From NCBI GenBank assembly GCA_009746045.1, contig RPFO01000288.1, positions 233,758-297,757 on the forward strand: a stretch of DNA of 64,000 nucleotides. Reading direction: 5' to 3'. The notes beneath the pieces were generated by a model. The model ran no database searches and had not been told where the DNA came from. It worked only from the letters and a program-made list of their open reading frames with translations. Source of the stretch: Mesostigma viride. Taxonomy: Eukaryota; Streptophyta; Mesostigmatophyceae; Mesostigmatales; Mesostigmataceae. A program made the translations under genes and the position numbers. This document shows positions 1 through 29,342 of the stretch, one piece after another (the first letter of the stretch is position 1; each line of letters starts with the position of its first letter).

Positions 1-155
1 AAGGGGAAGGGAAGGGGAAGGGAAGGGGAAGGGGAAGGGAAGGGGAAGGGGAAGGGAAGGGGAAGGGGAAGGGAAGGGAAGGGGAAGGGGAAGGGGAAGG
101 GGAAGGGGAAGGGGAAGGGGAAGGGGAAGGGGAGGGGGAGGGGGGCAGGAGACCA
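1..155. repeat. AAGGGG/AAGGG purine tandem repeat
   Basis: Irregular array of AAGGGG and AAGGG units starting at the window edge, so its true length is unknown. The G-tracts could form quadruplexes. No coding content is seen. Confidence 0.9.
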
Positions 156-1341: not shown

Positions 1342-4300
1342 TCACATGAAGTCCTCCTCCAGCTCCGCCACCGATCTGCCGCTCTCGGCCAGGTCCCGGT
1401 TCGTCTTCATGTCGGCTGCCTCAAAGATGGTCTTGTAGCTGCGCAGCTCCGCCTCCTTCTGGCGCTCCTGCTGCTGCTGCAGCTCCTCTTTCTTCTGCTC
1501 GCACACGCGACACAGGCAACTTGTCATACACAAACACATCAGACAGAATCACAAAAAAAGGTCTTGCTCACTCGCACTCGCACTCGCACACGCACACGCA
1601 CACGCACACGCACACGCACACGCACACGCACACGCACACGCACACGCACACGCACACGCACACGCACACGCACACGCACACGCACACGCACACGCACACG
1701 CACACGCACACGCCCACGCCCACGCCCACGCCCACGCCCACGCCCACGCCCACGCCCACGCGCACGCGCACGCGCACGCGCACGCGCACGCACACGCACA
1801 CGCACACGCACACGCACACGCACACGCACACGCACACGCACACGCACACGCACACGCACACGCACACGCACACGCACACGCACACGCACACGCACACGCA
1901 CACGCACACGCACACGCACTCGCACATGCACTCGCACACGCACACGCAACAAAAACAAAAACAATGCATGCAAACGCATCAGACAGAGAGCGGTGTTCAA
2001 CACACAGAGCCTTCTCATTGCAACCTTGTAACAAACAGGGATGGAAAGCACTATAATTTTGTGTCATTGTGCTCCGCGACTCCCCAACAAGAGCGCGTGA
2101 CTACTTAACCACTTAACTCACTGAGAGGCACACCGAGCGGCATTCAAGACACACAGGACTTGTTGCTGCGCTAGGCGGCAGCCCCTTTTCCTTATCCTGC
2201 GGTCCACATCACACCCCTGCTTCTCACCTGCTGCCGGAAGGCGTCCCGCCGCTCCCGCTTGAGCATGTCGTTGAACGCCTCCCGCTCGGCTGGCAGTGGA
2301 CAATGTGTAAACCCCCACCCACCATCGGGCACATCCGCGGAAGATGCACAGGACAACTTAAAGGACGATGCACAGGACAACTCCAAGGTCAATGCACAGG
2401 ACAACTCAAAGGACGATGCACAGGACAACTCAAAGGACGATGCAAAGGAGAATTCAAAGGACCATGCACAGGACAACTCAAAGGACGATGCAAAGGAGAC
2501 TTCAAAGGACGATGCACAGGACAACTCAAAGGACGATGCAAAGGAGACTTCAAAGGTCCATGCACAGGACAACTTAAAGGACGATGCAAAGGAGAATTCA
2601 AAGGACGATGCACAGGACAACTTAAAGGACGATGCAAAGGAGAATTCAAAGGACGATGCACAGGACAACTTAAAGGACGATGCAAAGGAGAATTCAAAGG
2701 TCCATGCAAAGGAGAATTCAAAGGAGGATGCACAGGACAACTTAAAGGACGATGCAAAGGACAACTTAAAGGACGATGCAAAGGAGAGCTCAAACTCTCA
2801 AAGGAAACATCAAAGGACAGCTCACAGGACAAAACAAAGGACAGCTCACAGGACAACTCGAGGAATGATGCAAAGGAAAACTCCAACGAGGAATCAAAGG
2901 ACAAAGCGGCAGCCATTCCAAAAGTCCAAGGGAGTAGGTAACATTGGCGGCCATTGCAGGGCGCAGAGCGGTGATTCCATCCTCATGGGCAAAGAAAAAT
3001 CCAGGGAAGGATGGGTGTGTCAGGATGGAAGGTTGGTGTTGTAGCCACCCGTGCCATTCTACATTACTTTAAATGATCGGCGCTGCGTGGGGGGGAGGGG
3101 GGGGGGTTCGATTGGGGTGGGTGGGTTGTCCAAATACATAGGGATAAACTACGAGCAGTATGCATGCAGATACTACTACGTATTGGGAGGGGTGGGTTGT
3201 CCAAATACATAGGGATAAACTACGAGCAGTATGTTTGCAGATACTACTACGTATTGGGAGGGGTGGGCATCGGTTGGGGTTGTCCCTGCTTGTGGTTGCA
3301 TTCCAGGGGCGGGGTGGGGACGTCCAAATACATAGGGATAGATGTATTAGGATATGTACTAGGGATACTAGTATGTCTTTTATAACGTTGGGGTGTACTA
3401 TCATTCCCTATATTGTCGTCAGAAAGCAACAAACGTGAAACGCTAGCTGCCCAAATCTGAGATTCCGCAGAACACAGAAAATAAGAAAGCCCAGAGACTA
3501 CCAGCAAGGAATCGAACATAGGACCTTTGGCATGATTTCGCCCCCCGATCCGAAGGCATCTCACTTAACGTTTGGAAACAGCCCAACTGCAAAAAAAACT
3601 CTTTACCGGAGAGGGGTGCCAATATGTCCGATACTGCTGAATCTATAGAAGATGACTCACCGCTAGAGCTATGTGCGCAGGAGATCATTCCCTGTATGAA
3701 CAGAAGGTAAATAGTATGTATTTTATTCCGTTGGGGTGTACTATCATTCCCTATATGAACAGAAGGTAATAGAGATCTGGAGTCTAGCCGTGGTGGCTGA
3801 CTGGTGAATGCAGTACAGGGATTATAAAACAGCACTCGTTATCATCCCAAATAACAACACAGCAGATGCTACCAGTTTTCTCACCTTTCAGGTCCGGCAT
3901 TGGCGTGCACTCCTCCTTGGTCGTGTTACAGCCTAGACAAACTTACATATCCGTAATCAAAATCACGGCAAAGGGCACGGTTCTCTACTCACCCTTGAGG
4001 TCGGGCATGCGCTCCTCCTTGGTCTTGTTGAGGCGGTTGACGATCTCGTTGATGCGCTTCTCCACACGCACGGTCTTGACCTGGGGTTGAGCAAGGGGCA
4101 GAATAGGGGCAGAATAGGGGCAGAATAGGGGCAGAATAGGGGCAGAATAGGGGCCAAAAAGGTTTGGTGGTATCGCAAGCAAGCTTAAAAGGCTTTGGCA
4201 AGGCTGATGATCTAATTGATCTGCTTCGAGATGGGCCCTGTCTTGACCTTGGAGTTCTGAAAGGGGCAGGACTAAAGAGGTAAAGGGCACATAGGTTTAG

Positions 4301-6811
4301 CCAAATTATTCACATAAACTATTGCTATAAAGGGGCAGGACAAAAGAGGTAAAGGGCACAGACGTTTTGCAAAATTATTCAGATAAAATAATAAATACAA
4401 TAGGGCAGGACCAAAGAGGTAAAGGGCACAGATGTTTCACAAAATTACTCATATAAAAACATTGATATACAGGGGCAGGACCAAAGAGGTAAAGGGCACA
4501 GATGTTTAGCAAAATTATTCATTAGAATTCTTCGTAGGGCAGGACGAAAGAGGTCAGGGCATATATATTTAGCATAATTATTCATATAAAATTTTTACTA
4601 CTAAAAAGGGAGCAGGACCAACGAGGCAAAGGGCACAGATTTTTAGCAAAATTACGCATTTACTACTACGATTATTATTTTAAATTACTACAATGAACAA
4701 GCATAAAAAGACTGTGCTCAAGCAGCACATGCTTCTCCACACGCACGGCCTGGACCTGAGACAAGATCACAAGAAAAGGGGGGGGGCAGCCAGGTTTGAA
4801 AGCAGTTGACAGCAGTCGTAAAGTATGTGACGGCTCAGTGACACGCTAGGTGCTTCCCCACGCGGACCGTCTTCACCTGGGGGTGGGGGGGGGGGGTATT
4901 AAGCAGGTTTACAAAGGATCGGGTGCTTGCTGCTGCCGCTGTGTGAGGACTTGAGTAGAAGAGTACGCGCATCTTGACGCCCGACGCACATGGCCATGAC
5001 CTGGGGGGCATATTTCTACTCATATCAGAACGCTAATGAGAATGGTGGGCTATTTCACGACTTCACGGCACGCTCATACGGAGCGCCCAGCACTATGCAC
5101 TGAGTCATCGTACACATAGACACACCGCATACATGATACCAGCCAGCACGCTTGTTTTGGCAGCCTCTGCTTGACCACGCCACGGCACGGGCCTACCCAC
5201 CAGCTTGTTGTTGTGGAAGCCGACCTTCCCCCCCTCCATCGAGGGGGTCTCCTTCACCACAACACGCATGCCTTCACACCATCACACATGCCCTCACACC
5301 ATCACACATGCCCTCACACCATCACCAACCGGCAACATCCTGACTCACCAGCTTGTTGTTGTGGAAGCCGACCTGCCCCACCTCCATCGAGGGGGTTTTC
5401 TTCAAGTTGGCCCAGGGAGTGTACACGACGTTTACGCGGTCCACCTTGTTGCCTGCACAAGGGGAACCGCAAAGGGTTTACGTGCCGGGTGGTCATGGCA
5501 GTTACGTGCAAAGTGCCATCAAACAGCACATGGACTCAGCGACCGGCAAGAATACAGGTCGGTGGGGAATCAGAAGGAGTAATGCTTATGATGGGTGGCA
5601 GATTTACCCCAATAATAATAAACATTACGCTGGTGCACAACTGATCAATGCCATCTCTACCTCGCCCCCCATCCCTATATCCTCCTCCCTCGATGATTGG
5701 TTTCATTTATTTATTTCCTAATGCCACACCACAACCACCACTGCCCTCACCCCCCCTGTGAACCCTGCCACACCACCCCACACCCCACACCCCACACCCC
5801 ACACCCCACACCCCACACCCCACACCCCACACCCCACACCCCACACCCCACACCCCACACCCCACACCCCACACCCCACACCCCACACCCCACACCCCAC
5901 ACCCCACACCCCACACCCCACACCCCACACCCCACACCCCACACCCCACACCCCACACTCCCACACACCCCACACACACCCCACCCCACCCTGGATGGAA
6001 TTGGCCTTGGTCAGCTGCTCGCTATCCTCGATCCCCTCCAACCAATTGGTTGACTTGTTAGCTAAGTAATTAGACACGTAATGTTCACCACCAGCACCCA
6101 CCCTGGATGGAGTCGACACCCACCCTGGATGGAGTTGGCCTTGACCAGCTGCGCACAGTCCTCGATCACCTCCGCGGGAATGCTGTCGATCTCCTCCCCC
6201 ACATTCATGCGCACGTAGACGTGGGCCGACGACATGTCGTCCACGTGGAACCTGGCGCGCGCCACCCACGAGCAGGCACCAGTATTACACAGACAGACGA
6301 GGCAGGACAAAGTTGAATATAGGCTATGATCTCGAAGGACGGGTCGTCCACGTGGAACCTGGCGTGATGCAGCGCAACGGTAGGTGTGCAGTATATACCT
6401 GTACACTGGCAATAACACAAAAGACATAACGTCGGATTGCTTGTCAAGCGGTGTTAAAGCTGGTGTGCGTTCCCAGACTACTTGTCACAAGGTATACAAA
6501 ATGGCTGCCGCCGCCCAAGCTACCTAGGGAGGCCATGTCAATAATCGTACCATGCGCCTACAACATCTCCCACTATTTTACGGCTTAATGGACACAAGCT
6601 ACCGCGATTTTCGTTTCGTTCAATTCTAGCCTCACGGGACTGCGAGAAGTAGCATTCACGAGGCACGAATGCAGACGGCGGTGGCACCGCTCACTCACCA
6701 AACGTCATGTGGCAGCCCATACTTGATCAAATCCTCATTTTCGAACTTGTCAAGCCCCATATAAATAATATAACCTTTTTCTGCCAGCCTAGGCTTGAAG
6801 TAGAAAACCAT
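1342..6811 (-). CDS. CCDC25: CCDC25 homologue (NFACT-R/DUF814 family), six exons
   Basis: Exons by splice phase on the minus strand: 6699-6811, 6124-6251, 5349-5452, 3993-4080, 2228-2289 and 1342-1494 (113+128+104+88+62+153 nt). Every junction is GT-AG and the phases agree, giving 215 aa, close to the roughly 208 aa of animal CCDC25. Seen in sequence: N-terminus [19 protein letters not shown], then [76 protein letters not shown], a charged Arg/Lys/Gln-rich helical tail and a final EEDFM. These match the family's NFACT-R domain followed by a coiled-coil tail. Family knowledge: animal CCDC25 is a membrane-associated DNA sensor and the fungal relative is Jlp2; the role here is unknown. The last acceptor could be 3 nt further upstream (1497). 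Each intron from 2 to 5 carries its own tandem repeat, and the introns contain partial copies of adjacent exon edges. Confidence 0.93.
1565..1950. repeat. CGCACA hexamer array in CCDC25 intron 5
   Basis: About 380 bp of CGCACA units with an internal block of CGCCCA (about 1711-1758), then CGCGCA, then CGCACA again. Long Thr-His, Arg-Thr or Val-Arg readings in all frames are artefacts of the repeat. It lies wholly in intron 5 (1495-2227) of CCDC25. Confidence 0.95.
2340..2930. repeat. 24-bp minisatellite in CCDC25 intron 4
   Basis: Tandem array built from 12-bp half-units such as AAGGACGATGCA and CAGGACAACTCA, arranged as 24-bp units and decaying towards 2930. All plus-strand and several minus-strand frames stay open because the period is a multiple of three. 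The open frames are therefore not evidence of a gene, although one would read as an Asp/Lys/Asn/Ala-rich hydrophilic repeat. It lies within intron 4 (2290-3992). Confidence 0.9.
3112..3340. repeat. Roughly 73-bp tandem repeat, CCDC25 intron 4
   Basis: Three copies, the last partial, of a unit containing TCCAAATACATAGGGATA and ending in ACTACTACGTATTGGGAGGG. Nearby (about 3380-3405 and 3735-3760) a second motif, GGGGTGTACTATCATTCCCT, occurs twice. Confidence 0.8.
3435..3600 (-). repeat. Diverged tRNA-like SINE copy
   Basis: On the minus strand it reads GATGCCTTCGGATCGGGG, followed downstream by a B-box-like GTTCGATTCC. The same order of motifs occurs in the better-preserved copies at 33290-33560 and 49735-49985. 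Interpreted as a tRNA-derived SINE relic inside CCDC25 intron 4. No intact tRNA cloverleaf is present. Confidence 0.5.
4090..4157. repeat. GGGGCAGAATA tandem repeat
   Basis: About six 11-bp units directly inside intron 3 of CCDC25, adjacent to the exon 4 acceptor at 4081. Such closeness to the acceptor could affect the polypyrimidine tract; on the minus strand the array reads TATTCTGCCCC. Confidence 0.9.
4258..4665. repeat. Roughly 70-bp tandem repeat, CCDC25 intron 3
   Basis: Six diverged copies, beginning near 4259, 4330, 4402, 4471, 4536 and 4607, each with GGGGCAGGACCAAAGAGG and AGCAAAATTATTCAT. No open frame of note. Confidence 0.85.
5764..5990. repeat. CCCCACA heptamer array, CCDC25 intron 2
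   Basis: About 200 bp of CCCCACA units, with a degenerate right end next to a partial copy of exon 2's 3' edge at 5989-6046. Resembles no standard telomere repeat. Confidence 0.95.
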
Positions 6812-7347: not shown

Positions 7348-7476
7348 ATAGATTCTCTGTTGCCCTTGGGCGGCGTGGGACACAACAACAACAACAACAA
7401 TGACTGAAATACTGTTGTTGTAGTAGTTGTTGTTGTTGTTGTGTCCCACGCCGCACATGGGCAGCAGAGAATCTAT
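7348..7476. repeat. 129-bp near-perfect inverted repeat (foldback)
   Basis: Arms of about 50 bp run ATAGATTCTCTG...GGCGTGGGACACAACAAC and are mirrored at the right end, with only a few mismatches and a loop of about 25 bp. Size and symmetry suggest a small foldback/MITE-type element. No convincing target duplication was seen. Confidence 0.7.
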
Positions 7477-7792: not shown

Positions 7793-7833
7793 AACAACAG
7801 GCCGAACGGCCTTAGTAATTTATTCCACTGTTG
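7755..7833 (-). mobile_element. Remnant of an older inverted LTR, left part
   Basis: The minus strand reads GTGGAATAAATTACTAAGGC followed by sequence alignable with the start of the Ty3 LTR at 7834, but with many substitutions. Its first 34 bp are found on the other side of the Ty3 insertion, at 34735-34768. The young Ty3 element therefore integrated into the LTR of an older, related element lying in the opposite orientation. Confidence 0.7.
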
Positions 7834-8417
7834 TGTTACGTCCCTGCCCTTTTGGCCGGACGTAACAATGGAATAAATTACTAAGGCCGTTTGGTCTATT
7901 GGACTTGGGTTTTATGGACCTTGGCTATTGTGTGAATTGGACTAGTTATTTTGGTCCTAGGTTGTCCTTTTAGGGGCCGGCGCTGTGGCGCCGCGCCAGT
8001 ACTGAGTCCGTCAGTAGTTCTAGGCGTGGATCCTATAGTTGAGGGTCGATGTCGGCCCGGATCCTATGTGGATTGAGTGACTCGGATTATTCTAGGGAAA
8101 TTGGCGTGTATCTGCGCCGCAACCAACCTAGGTTAAATCGGTCCGAGGACGAGAGTCTCGTCCTCTTGGTTTAATGAATGATAAGTGCGAATACGCCTAC
8201 ACATTGAGCCCGGGGCATTATCCATTTGTAATTGGTATTGCTAGCCAATATAAGTGTGAATTAATTAGCTTGGCATTAAGCCGTGATGCCAGATATCTCA
8301 CGACTCACGTCGTGAAGCGCAACCTACTTTAGGCTATCTTGAATTATTCCTAATTCCGGCAAGAAGGGTCTTTCGCTACGTAGCTCAGGCTAGGTGTGTC
8401 TGGGCAGGGACGTAACA
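7834..8417 (+). repeat. 5' LTR of Ty3 element
   Basis: 584 bp. It begins TGTTACGTCCCTGCCC and ends with the exact reverse complement GGGCAGGGACGTAACA, an unusually long 16-bp terminal inverted repeat. The first 34 bp also form a hairpin: TGTTACGTCC at 7834-7843 pairs with GGACGTAACA at 7858-7867. Contains the empty TTAA site (GTGAATTAATTAGC) that is occupied in the 3' LTR. Confidence 0.95.
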
Positions 8418-26060: not shown

Positions 26061-26790
26061 CGGTGTTGCACCGTGTCCAGCTCCAGGAGGGTTCCGGCCT
26101 ACCGTGTCTCCCATGTACCGCATGGGCCCAGTCGAGCTGGTGGAGCTCAAGAAGATCCTCATTTCACTGCTCGACGCTGGGCTCATTGAACCCAGCAACA
26201 GCCCCTTCTCAGCGGGCGTGCTGCTCGTTCCCAAGCCAGGAGGCAAGTGGCGTCTGGTGACGGATTACCGGAAGCTGAACGCCATCACCGTCAAGTCCCG
26301 GTATCCTCTACCGCGGATCGACGACATCTTCAACCGTGTCCAGGGGGCCACGTGTTTCACCGTCATCGACTGTGCGGACGGGTTTTGGCAGCTGCGCATC
26401 GCGCCAGAAGACTGCCACAAGACCGCGTTCGCTACGCCCTTCGGTCACTATCAGTTTCGGGTGGCGGCAATGGGGCTGTGCAATTCGCCGGCGTCCTTCC
26501 AGATGCTGATGAATGATATCCTCCGTCCGGTGATGGGCACAGCCCACTTGCCGCAGGTCTCCCAGGACCTGGCGGACCCGCAGAAGGGGGCGCGCCCGCC
26601 CTGGACCTACAAGCGCACGTGCGCGCTGGCGTATCTGGACGACATCCTGGTGTACTCCAAGACGTTCGAGGAGCACCTAGAGGATGTGGACGCCGTGCTG
26701 CAGATCATGGAGGATGAGCACCTTTCGGCGCGGAAAGCCAAGGTGCGCGCCGGCCGCTGCGTGCCGTTTCTGGGCCATACCTTGTCCGCG
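26060..26790 (+). CDS. pol: Ty3 pol: reverse transcriptase
   Basis: Contains PVELVELKKILISLLDAGLI, KWRLVTDYRKLNAIT, YPLPRIDDIF, FTVIDCADGFWQLRI (first catalytic Asp), MGLCNSPASFQ and the YLDD box at 26632-26643, all in the order of Ty3/gypsy RT. Two closely spaced frame changes precede it (about 26050-26095) and another follows FLGHTL at about 26785. Confidence 0.9.
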
Positions 26791-28745: not shown

Positions 28746-29342
28746 CAGGGGGTTGATCGCTTGCTGCAGCGGATGCACCAGGCTCATAACAGTGCAGTCC
28801 AGGGCTACCGCGCCGCGACCGAGCGGTATCTGGAGAGGACAGCCGGCAAGCGGGATAACCGGGCGCCGTCCATTGAGGTGGGCGATTGGGTCCTGGTGGA
28901 GGGCCCACAGATCGGACGATTCTCACACAAGGTGGAGAAGGAGCTGAAGACTAAGCTTCGTCCCATGTTCCTGGGCCCCTACAAGGTTCTCACCAAGTTT
29001 GACGACGTCATGTTCCAGGTGGACGTCCCGGTGTCATGGAACCTCACGTCCAACCGTTTCCATCGTGACCAGCTCAAGTTGTACCACCAGAACACCATTC
29101 AGGGTAGGGTCAATCCCCCGGCCCCGTTGGAGTTCAATCCGGACACAGGGGAACAGGAGGATGAGGTGGCTGCGATCGTGGGACACCGAGATGTCAAACG
29201 AGGTCGGGGGACCCAGCGACAGTACCGTGTGCGATGGCGATTCGCGCAGCATGAGTCGGAGGACTCCTGGCGCACCCCTACTGAGTTAGCGGGTTGCGCC
29301 CGCTTATTGGAAGCATACAAGAAGACACACCAATTGCATTAA
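28725..29342 (+). CDS. pol: Ty3 pol: integrase C-terminus with chromodomain
   Basis: Open to a TAA at 29340-29342. Includes the GPY/F-type segment LRPMFLGPYKVL and, at about 29150-29330, a chromodomain-like module (AAIVGHRDVKRGRGTQRQYR, then VRWRF, ESEDSWRTPTEL, LLEAYKK). A C-terminal chromodomain defines chromoviruses and steers integration to particular chromatin marks. Confidence 0.85.
   Translation, partial: QVKLDTRQGVDRLLQRMHQAHNSAVQGYRAATERYLERTAGKRDNRAPSIEVGDWVLVEGPQIGRFSHKVEKELKTKLRPMFLGPYKVLTKFDDVMFQVDVPVSWNLTSNRFHRDQLKLYHQNTIQGRVNPPAPLEFNPDTGEQEDEVAAIVGHRDVKRGRGTQRQYRVRWRFAQHESEDSWRTPTELAGCARLLEAYKKTHQLH

What the first reader, a model, noticed from the sequence alone, without database searches (positions are those of the whole stretch)
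1342..6811. Exon-edge echoes in CCDC25 introns
Beside almost every exon there are partial copies of that exon's edge. 5'-edge copies sit upstream of the true acceptor: exon 2 at 6345-6366 (GTCGTCCACGTGGAACCTGG identical to 6237-6256); exon 4 at 4850-4880, 4726-4756, 4225-4257 and possibly 4975-5005. 3'-edge copies sit downstream of the true donor: exon 2 at 5989-6046 and 6095-6117, exon 3 at 5197-5258, exon 4 at 3889-3935, and a weak exon 5 copy at 2150-2185. Several keep the AG or GT of the splice site. Similarity falls with distance, as if produced by repeated tandem duplication across exon/intron boundaries. This could be a mechanism of intron growth, or a source of cryptic splice sites.
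Basis: partly seen in the sequence, partly recalled or inferred. Interest (0 to 1): 0.88.

Follow-up and report, generated by a model that had tools for sequence, protein, structure and literature searches.

The report
Decayed exon-end copies inside introns
In this green alga's genes, many introns carry worn copies of the end of the neighbouring exon together with its splice signal, apparently left by repeated small tandem duplications across the exon border, so that introns grow while the protein stays the same.

Summary
The genome is taken as Mesostigma viride (inferred). Among 123 predicted exons of other genes, 28/122 donor and 13/122 acceptor edges have a copy on the correct side; reverse-complement, wrong-side and exon-interior controls give 0/614. 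Best explanation: small tandem duplications straddling the exon-intron border; the exon-side copy stays in use (inferred), the inner copy decays neutrally. Contiguous arrays exist: 48 nt x ~10, 76 nt x 4, 70 nt x 3. Two near-identical contigs differ by a 43-nt tandem duplication. Two paralogous kinesin genes share a boundary array evolving in concert. Unresolved: only 11 of 42 testable echoes also share their intron part, against 66-89% simulated; paralogous introns lose much, not all, of their similarity. A boundary-crossing tandem duplication is known singly (potato RdRp); the frequency here is new. Splicing use is untested.

The parts
6699..6811 (-). CCDC25 exon 1 (coding start at 6811)
   Evidence: spliced translation aligned with P0001/P0002
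6124..6251 (-). CCDC25 exon 2
5349..5452 (-). CCDC25 exon 3
3993..4080 (-). CCDC25 exon 4
2228..2289 (-). CCDC25 exon 5
1342..1494 (-). CCDC25 exon 6 (acceptor uncertain by a few codons)
6343..6364 (-). echo of exon 2 5' edge with its CAG (22/22, -6 to +16)
6095..6113 (-). contiguous tandem copy of exon 2 3' edge with GTGGGTG (unit 22 nt)
   Evidence: sequence
5985..6039 (-). echo of exon 2 3' edge with GTGGG (85%, 55 nt)
5195..5256 (-). echo of exon 3 3' edge with GTGGGT (92%, 62 nt)
4202..4269 (-). diverged echo of exon 4 5' edge (72%, 68 nt)
4731..4758 (-). echo of exon 4 5' edge with CAG (93%, 28 nt)
4852..4885 (-). echo of exon 4 5' edge with CCCCCAG (82%, 34 nt)
4984..5006 (-). borderline echo of exon 4 5' edge
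   Evidence: score 23, 0.3% of local shuffles
3880..3927 (-). echo of exon 4 3' edge with GGTGAG (77%, 48 columns, one 6-nt gap)
4260..4654 (.). 70-bp tandem array (5.7 copies) in intron 3, lying among the exon 4 echoes
5774..5984 (.). 7-bp CACCCCA array in intron 2, immediately beyond the exon 2 3' echo

Best explanation
The echoes are the intronic halves of small tandem duplications (units mostly about 25-175 nt) whose copied segment straddled an exon-intron border. After such a duplication one copy of the exon edge with its splice site remains joined to the exon and stays in use; the other lies inside the intron, is spliced out and decays neutrally. Only border-straddling events with the used site on the exon side leave this trace, because copies wholly inside an exon, or ones that shift splicing, damage the protein. 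Repetition gives arrays of exon edges, and introns lengthen stepwise. Units can also exchange sequence with the exon edge (concerted evolution), while intron sequence outside the arrays turns over fast, so that older echoes keep mainly exon edge plus splice motif. SHOWN: existence, side-specificity and frequency in the sample, neutral pattern of changes, contiguous arrays, a 43-nt tandem duplication that differs between two near-identical contigs, gene-specific homogenisation in one paralog pair. INFERRED: that all echoes arose by tandem duplication; that intron turnover explains the missing intron parts; the DNA-level cause (slippage, unequal exchange or repair of staggered breaks); that the exon-side site is the one spliced.
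For: Predicted exons: donors 28/122, acceptors 13/122 with an echo within 600 nt on the correct side; reverse complement 0/244, wrong side 0/242, exon interior 0/128. Exons not matched by Pfam alone: 13/96 against 0/220. Earlier Pfam-exon run: 17/68 and 10/82, other genes' flanks 2/340 and 0/410. Contiguous arrays with exon and intron parts: L064 donor 48 nt x about 10, C1468 76 nt x 4, C1579 70 nt x 3. Mismatches exon versus echo by codon position: 52/440, 36/447, 67/441; 60 synonymous, 90 nonsynonymous, 5 stops, as expected if the echo drifts and the exon changes mostly at silent sites. GT kept 18/26, AG 8/11 at mean identity about 0.89. C1641 and C887 differ by a 43-nt tandem duplication between two exon matches (98% to its neighbour). 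Paralogs C2189/C1579 share a three-unit 70-nt array; intron units 1 and 2 differ 0/48 and 3/48 within a gene, 8/48 and 9/48 between genes; 8 diagnostic columns, 0 ancestral unit differences. Splice-adjacent segments of these paralogs outside the array: 0/8 reach p<=0.02 in the same test that most echoes fail, although exon edge and motif stay alike. Intron 50-mers also find local copies (15/117) and about 11% of the sampled sequence is in tandem arrays of period >=10, so no border-specific process is required.
Against: Only 11 of 42 testable nearest echoes have a spacer homologous (p<=0.02) to the sequence beyond the echo, with 3 more contiguous; 5 of 15 at exon identity >=0.9; 9 of 28 in the earlier set. 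My simulations of plain tandem duplication with neutral decay predict 66-89%; P at most 2.3e-7 for the four runs. The paralog comparison only partly repairs this: two of three whole introns are still detectably alike (p 0.0099, the floor for 100 shuffles), blastn aligns 62 intronic nt upstream of one acceptor and one 47-nt island, and the pair (4-fold divergence 0.23-0.64 by exon) is more diverged than most echoes. In 5 of 28 spacer cases examined the similarity stops 13-35 nt short of the junction, so not every echo holds the very edge. Exon 4 echoes are not in order of age. Gene models outside CCDC25 come from Pfam matches or my own splice/codon scoring, not transcripts.
Confidence: 0.74

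Rival explanations
1. Split insertion: breaks with staggered ends at the border are filled in and joined with unrelated filler DNA, leaving the exon edge duplicated on both sides of a new insert (patch-mediated break repair) rather than a contiguous tandem copy.
For: 31 of 42 testable echoes have no detectable spacer homology at p<=0.02, including close copies (C1702 94%/33 nt, CCDC25 exon 3 93%/56 nt, CCDC25 exon 2 5' edge 22/22).
Against: In 26 of 28 spacer cases the ungapped similarity ends within 12 nt past the junction (the other two are contiguous arrays); random stagger would give a broad range. Splice-adjacent paralogous introns lose similarity without any insertion being needed (0/8 at p<=0.02), though whole introns partly keep it.
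Confidence: 0.28
2. The echoes are functional decoy or backup splice sites kept by selection.
For: Many echoes retain the splice motif and are 85-95% identical to the exon edge.
Against: Codon-position pattern is neutral, 5 stop changes, GT 18/26 and AG 8/11 retention no higher than neutral decay would leave.
Confidence: 0.06
3. Introner-like mobile elements inserted at splice sites with target-site duplications.
For: Direct repeats flank a spacer of similar size at many genes.
Against: A 401-base query holding the CCDC25 exon 2 spacers matches only itself in the genome (that search skips very common words). 28 spacers find no other locus in the fetched DNA and window except the paralog pair (a sample, not the genome). 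Exon parts of the repeats vary from about 13 to 60 nt, whereas reported introner TSDs are 3-9 bp (PMC9860276, passage read).
Confidence: 0.03
4. Assembly artefact or chance similarity.
For: None found here; raw reads were not available.
Against: 0/614 controls; copies carry their own substitutions; two genes share one array with gene-specific changes. The published assembly is long-read with short-read polishing (PMC6947507, passages read).
Confidence: 0.02

Closest known systems
Boundary-crossing tandem duplication in potato RdRp (Ma, Lan and Niu 2016, PMC4974935, abstract read)
   Same: Tandem duplication crosses an intron-exon border and copies splice signals.
   Different: There it created a new intron in one gene; here existing introns grow, at about one edge in six of those sampled, with multi-copy arrays.
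Intron gain by tandem duplication of an AGGT exonic segment (proto-splice-site model; PMC2891723, passages read)
   Same: Tandem duplication of exon sequence with splice motifs.
   Different: By my inference the model puts a copy of the upstream exon end just before the acceptor; here copies of the upstream exon end lie near the donor and copies of the downstream exon start near the acceptor.
Minisatellites / small tandem duplications from break repair (PMC8355091, abstract read)
   Same: Unit size, contiguous arrays, homogenised units.
   Different: The array includes the live exon edge, which is held by selection while other units drift.
Introners (PMC9860276, passages read)
   Same: Direct repeats around intronic DNA at splice sites.
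   Different: No repeated element family found, long variable repeats, no new intron shown.
Direct repeats near splice sites (Rogers and Bendich 2025, PMC11782384, abstract read)
   Same: Reports direct repeats near intron borders.
   Different: It compares the 5' and 3' borders of an intron (4-30 bp, mean 11.4); here one border is compared with its own adjoining intron.

Membership tests
Border-straddling tandem duplication | Copied segment includes exon edge, splice motif and intron sequence in contiguous head-to-tail units | tested here: inconclusive
   Met for 3 contiguous plus 11 of 42 testable nearest echoes and for arrays; intron part not detectable in 31 of 42
Border-straddling tandem duplication | Copies lie only on the side where the exon-adjacent site restores the mRNA | tested here: met
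   41/244 correct side, 0/242 wrong side
Intron gain by AGGT tandem duplication | New intron bounded by the two copies of an exonic AGGT | tested here: not met
   Echoes lie within a longer intron, at the opposite ends from the prediction; age of the intron positions was not tested
Introner element | Family of similar sequences at many loci | tested here: not met
   CCDC25 exon 2 region, genome; 28 spacers, fetched DNA only
Introner element | Short target-site duplication (3-9 bp reported) | tested here: not met
   Exon parts of echoes range from about 13 to 60 nt
Minisatellite array | Head-to-tail units of about 10-100 nt with homogenised units | tested here: met
   Met for the 48, 70 and 76 nt arrays and gene-specific homogenisation; only a minority of echoes are in such arrays
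Functional alternative splice sites | Use of the echo site in transcripts | not testable with these tools
   No RNA reads available

The most novel reading that the evidence does not exclude
The exon edge with its splice motif behaves as a module: exon borders are preferred sites of duplication, and the exon copy, held by selection, repeatedly rewrites its intronic echoes by conversion. Introns would then be partly built from, and refreshed by, the exons that they separate, perhaps with the process anchored at splice sites.
Probability: 0.15. Interest if true: 0.88.

Novelty: new variant of a known kind. Interest (0 to 1): 0.58.

Why it matters
Intron lengthening is usually put down to transposons. 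Here a second route is visible and countable: about one in four donor edges and one in nine acceptor edges in the sample carry a relic of a duplication that left the protein unchanged. It also supplies natural loci where near-identical splice sites stand in tandem some 50-150 nt apart in the same exon context (about ten at one donor), so the rule by which the spliceosome picks the outermost site could be tested directly with transcript data.

Tried and rejected
Exon 5 echo: at shuffle level. Maintained decoys: neutral pattern. Introners: spacers not repeated where tested. Splice-anchored copying was seriously considered because similarity stops just past the splice motif and simulations of plain decay failed; it lost ground, without being excluded, when splice-adjacent segments of true paralogous introns also failed the same test (0/8), but two of three whole introns of that pair still pass it. 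Near-identical contigs C622/C2 were uninformative (99.95% identical). Unit length modulo 3: no obvious bias, no formal test. Donor/acceptor difference in the intronic part of the unit (below 60 nt: 11/32 donors, 0/15 acceptors, p 0.009) would fit a need to copy branch point and pyrimidine tract at acceptors, but the cut-off was chosen afterwards and searches show acceptor cases at about 38, 53 and 59 nt, so it is only suggestive. HSP70 and dynein family coordinates were not used in any count.

Rows dropped before counts: of the 187 matches listed for the two families (58 + 129), 103 had fetched flanks of at least 250 nt and were used; L002 and L032-L035 (one long open frame each) and the copies on C1641 (near-duplicate of C887) were left out. 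Of the 103, 8 with a stop in the match were dropped, and 68 donors / 82 acceptors of the 95 passed my hand-set splice limits. In one search, 122 donor and 122 acceptor edges of 123 predicted exons had enough flank. GT/AG retention counts only echoes aligned to within 3 nt of the junction (26 of 32 donors, 11 of 15 acceptors). In the paralog test the array itself is left out of the 0/8; one of those 8 is the segment just beyond the array, and one (exon B acceptor, p 0.77) is C-rich and is aligned by blastn over 62 nt.

Full report
WHAT AND WHERE. The window lies at C1835:233758-297757 of a 440-Mb, 2243-contig genome. A CCDC25 protein identical over its aligned length is named jgi/Mesvir1 in the database. 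I take this as Mesostigma viride: the reading of 'Mesvir1' is recalled, but size and contig count are close to the published assembly (442 Mb, 2363 scaffolds, PacBio plus Illumina polishing, intron length 1141.9 bp; PMC6947507, passages read). CCDC25 runs on the minus strand in six exons with GT-AG introns of 447, 671, 1268, 1703 and 733 nt.

OBSERVATION. In CCDC25, blastn of each exon with 40-nt flanks finds the copies listed in parts; the 22-nt adjacent copy at 6095-6113 is read from the sequence. By exon-only scores, 5 of 10 splice-adjacent edges exceed all 300 dinucleotide shuffles of their intron. Every supported copy of a 3' edge is downstream and every one of a 5' edge is upstream. The exon 5 echo fails, the 4975-5005 echo is borderline, and a weak hit beyond the last exon (1141-1169, E 0.014) is not counted.

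WIDER SAMPLE. Exons of the Cpn60/TCP1 and kinesin families were located in the genome and read with flanks. With Pfam-located exons, 17/68 donor edges and 10/82 acceptor edges score >=26 against 600 nt of the correct flank. Reverse complement and wrong-side controls are 0/68, 0/68, 0/82, 0/82; exon interiors 0/76; other genes' flanks 2/340 and 0/410. A codon-and-splice scorer trained on those exons predicts 123 exons on the gene strand against 5 on the opposite strand, and recovers CCDC25 exons 2-5 exactly. With these, 28/122 donors and 13/122 acceptors have echoes against 0/614 controls (Fisher 3e-24); 19 of 33 contigs have at least one; donors exceed acceptors (p 0.016). The exons not matched by Pfam alone give 13/96 against 0/220. 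The splice weights were set by hand, and the sample is two gene families with their neighbouring exons, not all genes.

ANATOMY. Spacing from true edge to best echo has median 115 nt, 36 of 47 within 200 nt; identity falls with spacing (Spearman -0.38, p 0.009). Some echoes are plain contiguous arrays: a donor in L064 begins a 48-nt unit (31 exon + 17 intron) repeated about ten times; C1468 has 76 nt x 4 and C1579 70 nt x 3. In most of the others the similarity covers exon edge and splice motif and then stops, though in 5 of 28 cases examined it stops 13-35 nt short of the junction. Mismatches are spread over codon positions as expected if the echo drifts and the exon changes mostly at silent sites, and splice dinucleotides are kept at about or slightly below the neutral level.

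THE HARD PART. If every echo were a plain tandem copy, the spacer before the echo should resemble the sequence after it. It does at p<=0.02 in 11 of 42 testable cases, plus 3 contiguous ones; simulations with small and large indels predict 66-89%. This rejects plain duplication with the decay that I simulated. Two observations on real DNA bear on it. First, contigs C1641 and C887 (aligned blocks 97.0%, 96.1% and, with the 43-nt gap counted, 91.4% identical) differ by a 43-nt tandem duplication, several smaller indels and a 3.1-kb LTR element with identical 730-bp ends, so such duplications do arise. Second, paralogous kinesin genes C2189 and C1579 (4-fold divergence 0.23-0.64 by exon) have splice-adjacent intron segments of which 0 of 8 outside the shared array reach p<=0.02, although exon edge and motif remain alike. 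Many old echoes look the same. Against this, two of three whole introns of the pair are still detectably alike (p 0.0099, the floor for 100 shuffles), and blastn aligns 62 intronic nt before one acceptor and one 47-nt island. I therefore prefer fast intron turnover, and keep split insertion as the main rival; the matter is not settled.

CONCERTED EVOLUTION. Those paralogs share a three-unit 70-nt array across one donor: 146 intronic nt, 82% identical, no gaps, then similarity stops. Intron units 1 and 2 differ at 0/48 and 3/48 positions within each gene, but at 8/48 and 9/48 between genes; 8 columns are fixed within and different between genes (one in the exon edge) and none shows an ancestral difference between units. 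Either the units exchange sequence, exon edge included, or both genes duplicated the same unit in the same register independently.

MECHANISM. A local duplication that straddles a border leaves two exon edges. If the exon-adjacent site is used the mRNA is unchanged, so the event is nearly neutral and the intron is longer by one unit. Events inside exons are removed by selection, and events inside introns are common too (15/117 intron 50-mers score >=26 against following sequence; about 11% of sampled DNA in arrays of period >=10). A border-specific process is therefore not required, though it is not excluded. The DNA cause is not resolved; break repair, slippage and unequal exchange all fit.

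KNOWN AND NEW. A single case of a tandem duplication crossing an intron-exon border, making a new intron, is reported in potato (PMC4974935, abstract read). In ten searches of the open library the titles and abstract starts that were listed, in some searches only the top rows of many, named no genome in which exon-edge echoes are common; most subscription journals are not held. I call it a new variant of a known kind.

Noticed in passing
L088:1334-4458 against L089 (C1641 / C887): A 3.1-kb LTR element with two identical 730-bp ends is present in one of two near-identical contigs, between two exon matches of a Cpn60/TCP1 gene: apparently a very young insertion. Described only.
   Followed up: partly
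C2189:669885-672654 and C1579:5601116-5610912: Paralogous kinesin genes share a three-unit boundary array whose units are homogenised within each gene.
   Followed up: yes
window 26132-26742 and 28770-29103 (+): Predicted coding stretches whose translations look like a reverse transcriptase and the end of a retroelement polyprotein (label recalled, not searched).
   Followed up: no
window 7348-7476 and 7795-7901: Two long inverted repeats (51-nt arms 94% complementary; 38-nt arms 89%) just upstream of CCDC25, possible small inverted-repeat elements.
   Followed up: no
P0001: The database CCDC25 model lacks 17 N-terminal residues and 21 residues of exon 6 that the genome and plant relatives support.
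   Followed up: partly
C224:6082539-6082745: A weak dynein AAA match lies in a reported open frame of 5789 residues, unusually long for this intron-rich genome.
   Followed up: no
window 1-150, 1569-1948, 2339-2904, 3111-3267: Dense simple and minisatellite arrays (6, 24/96 and 71 bp) in and beside CCDC25 introns.
   Followed up: partly
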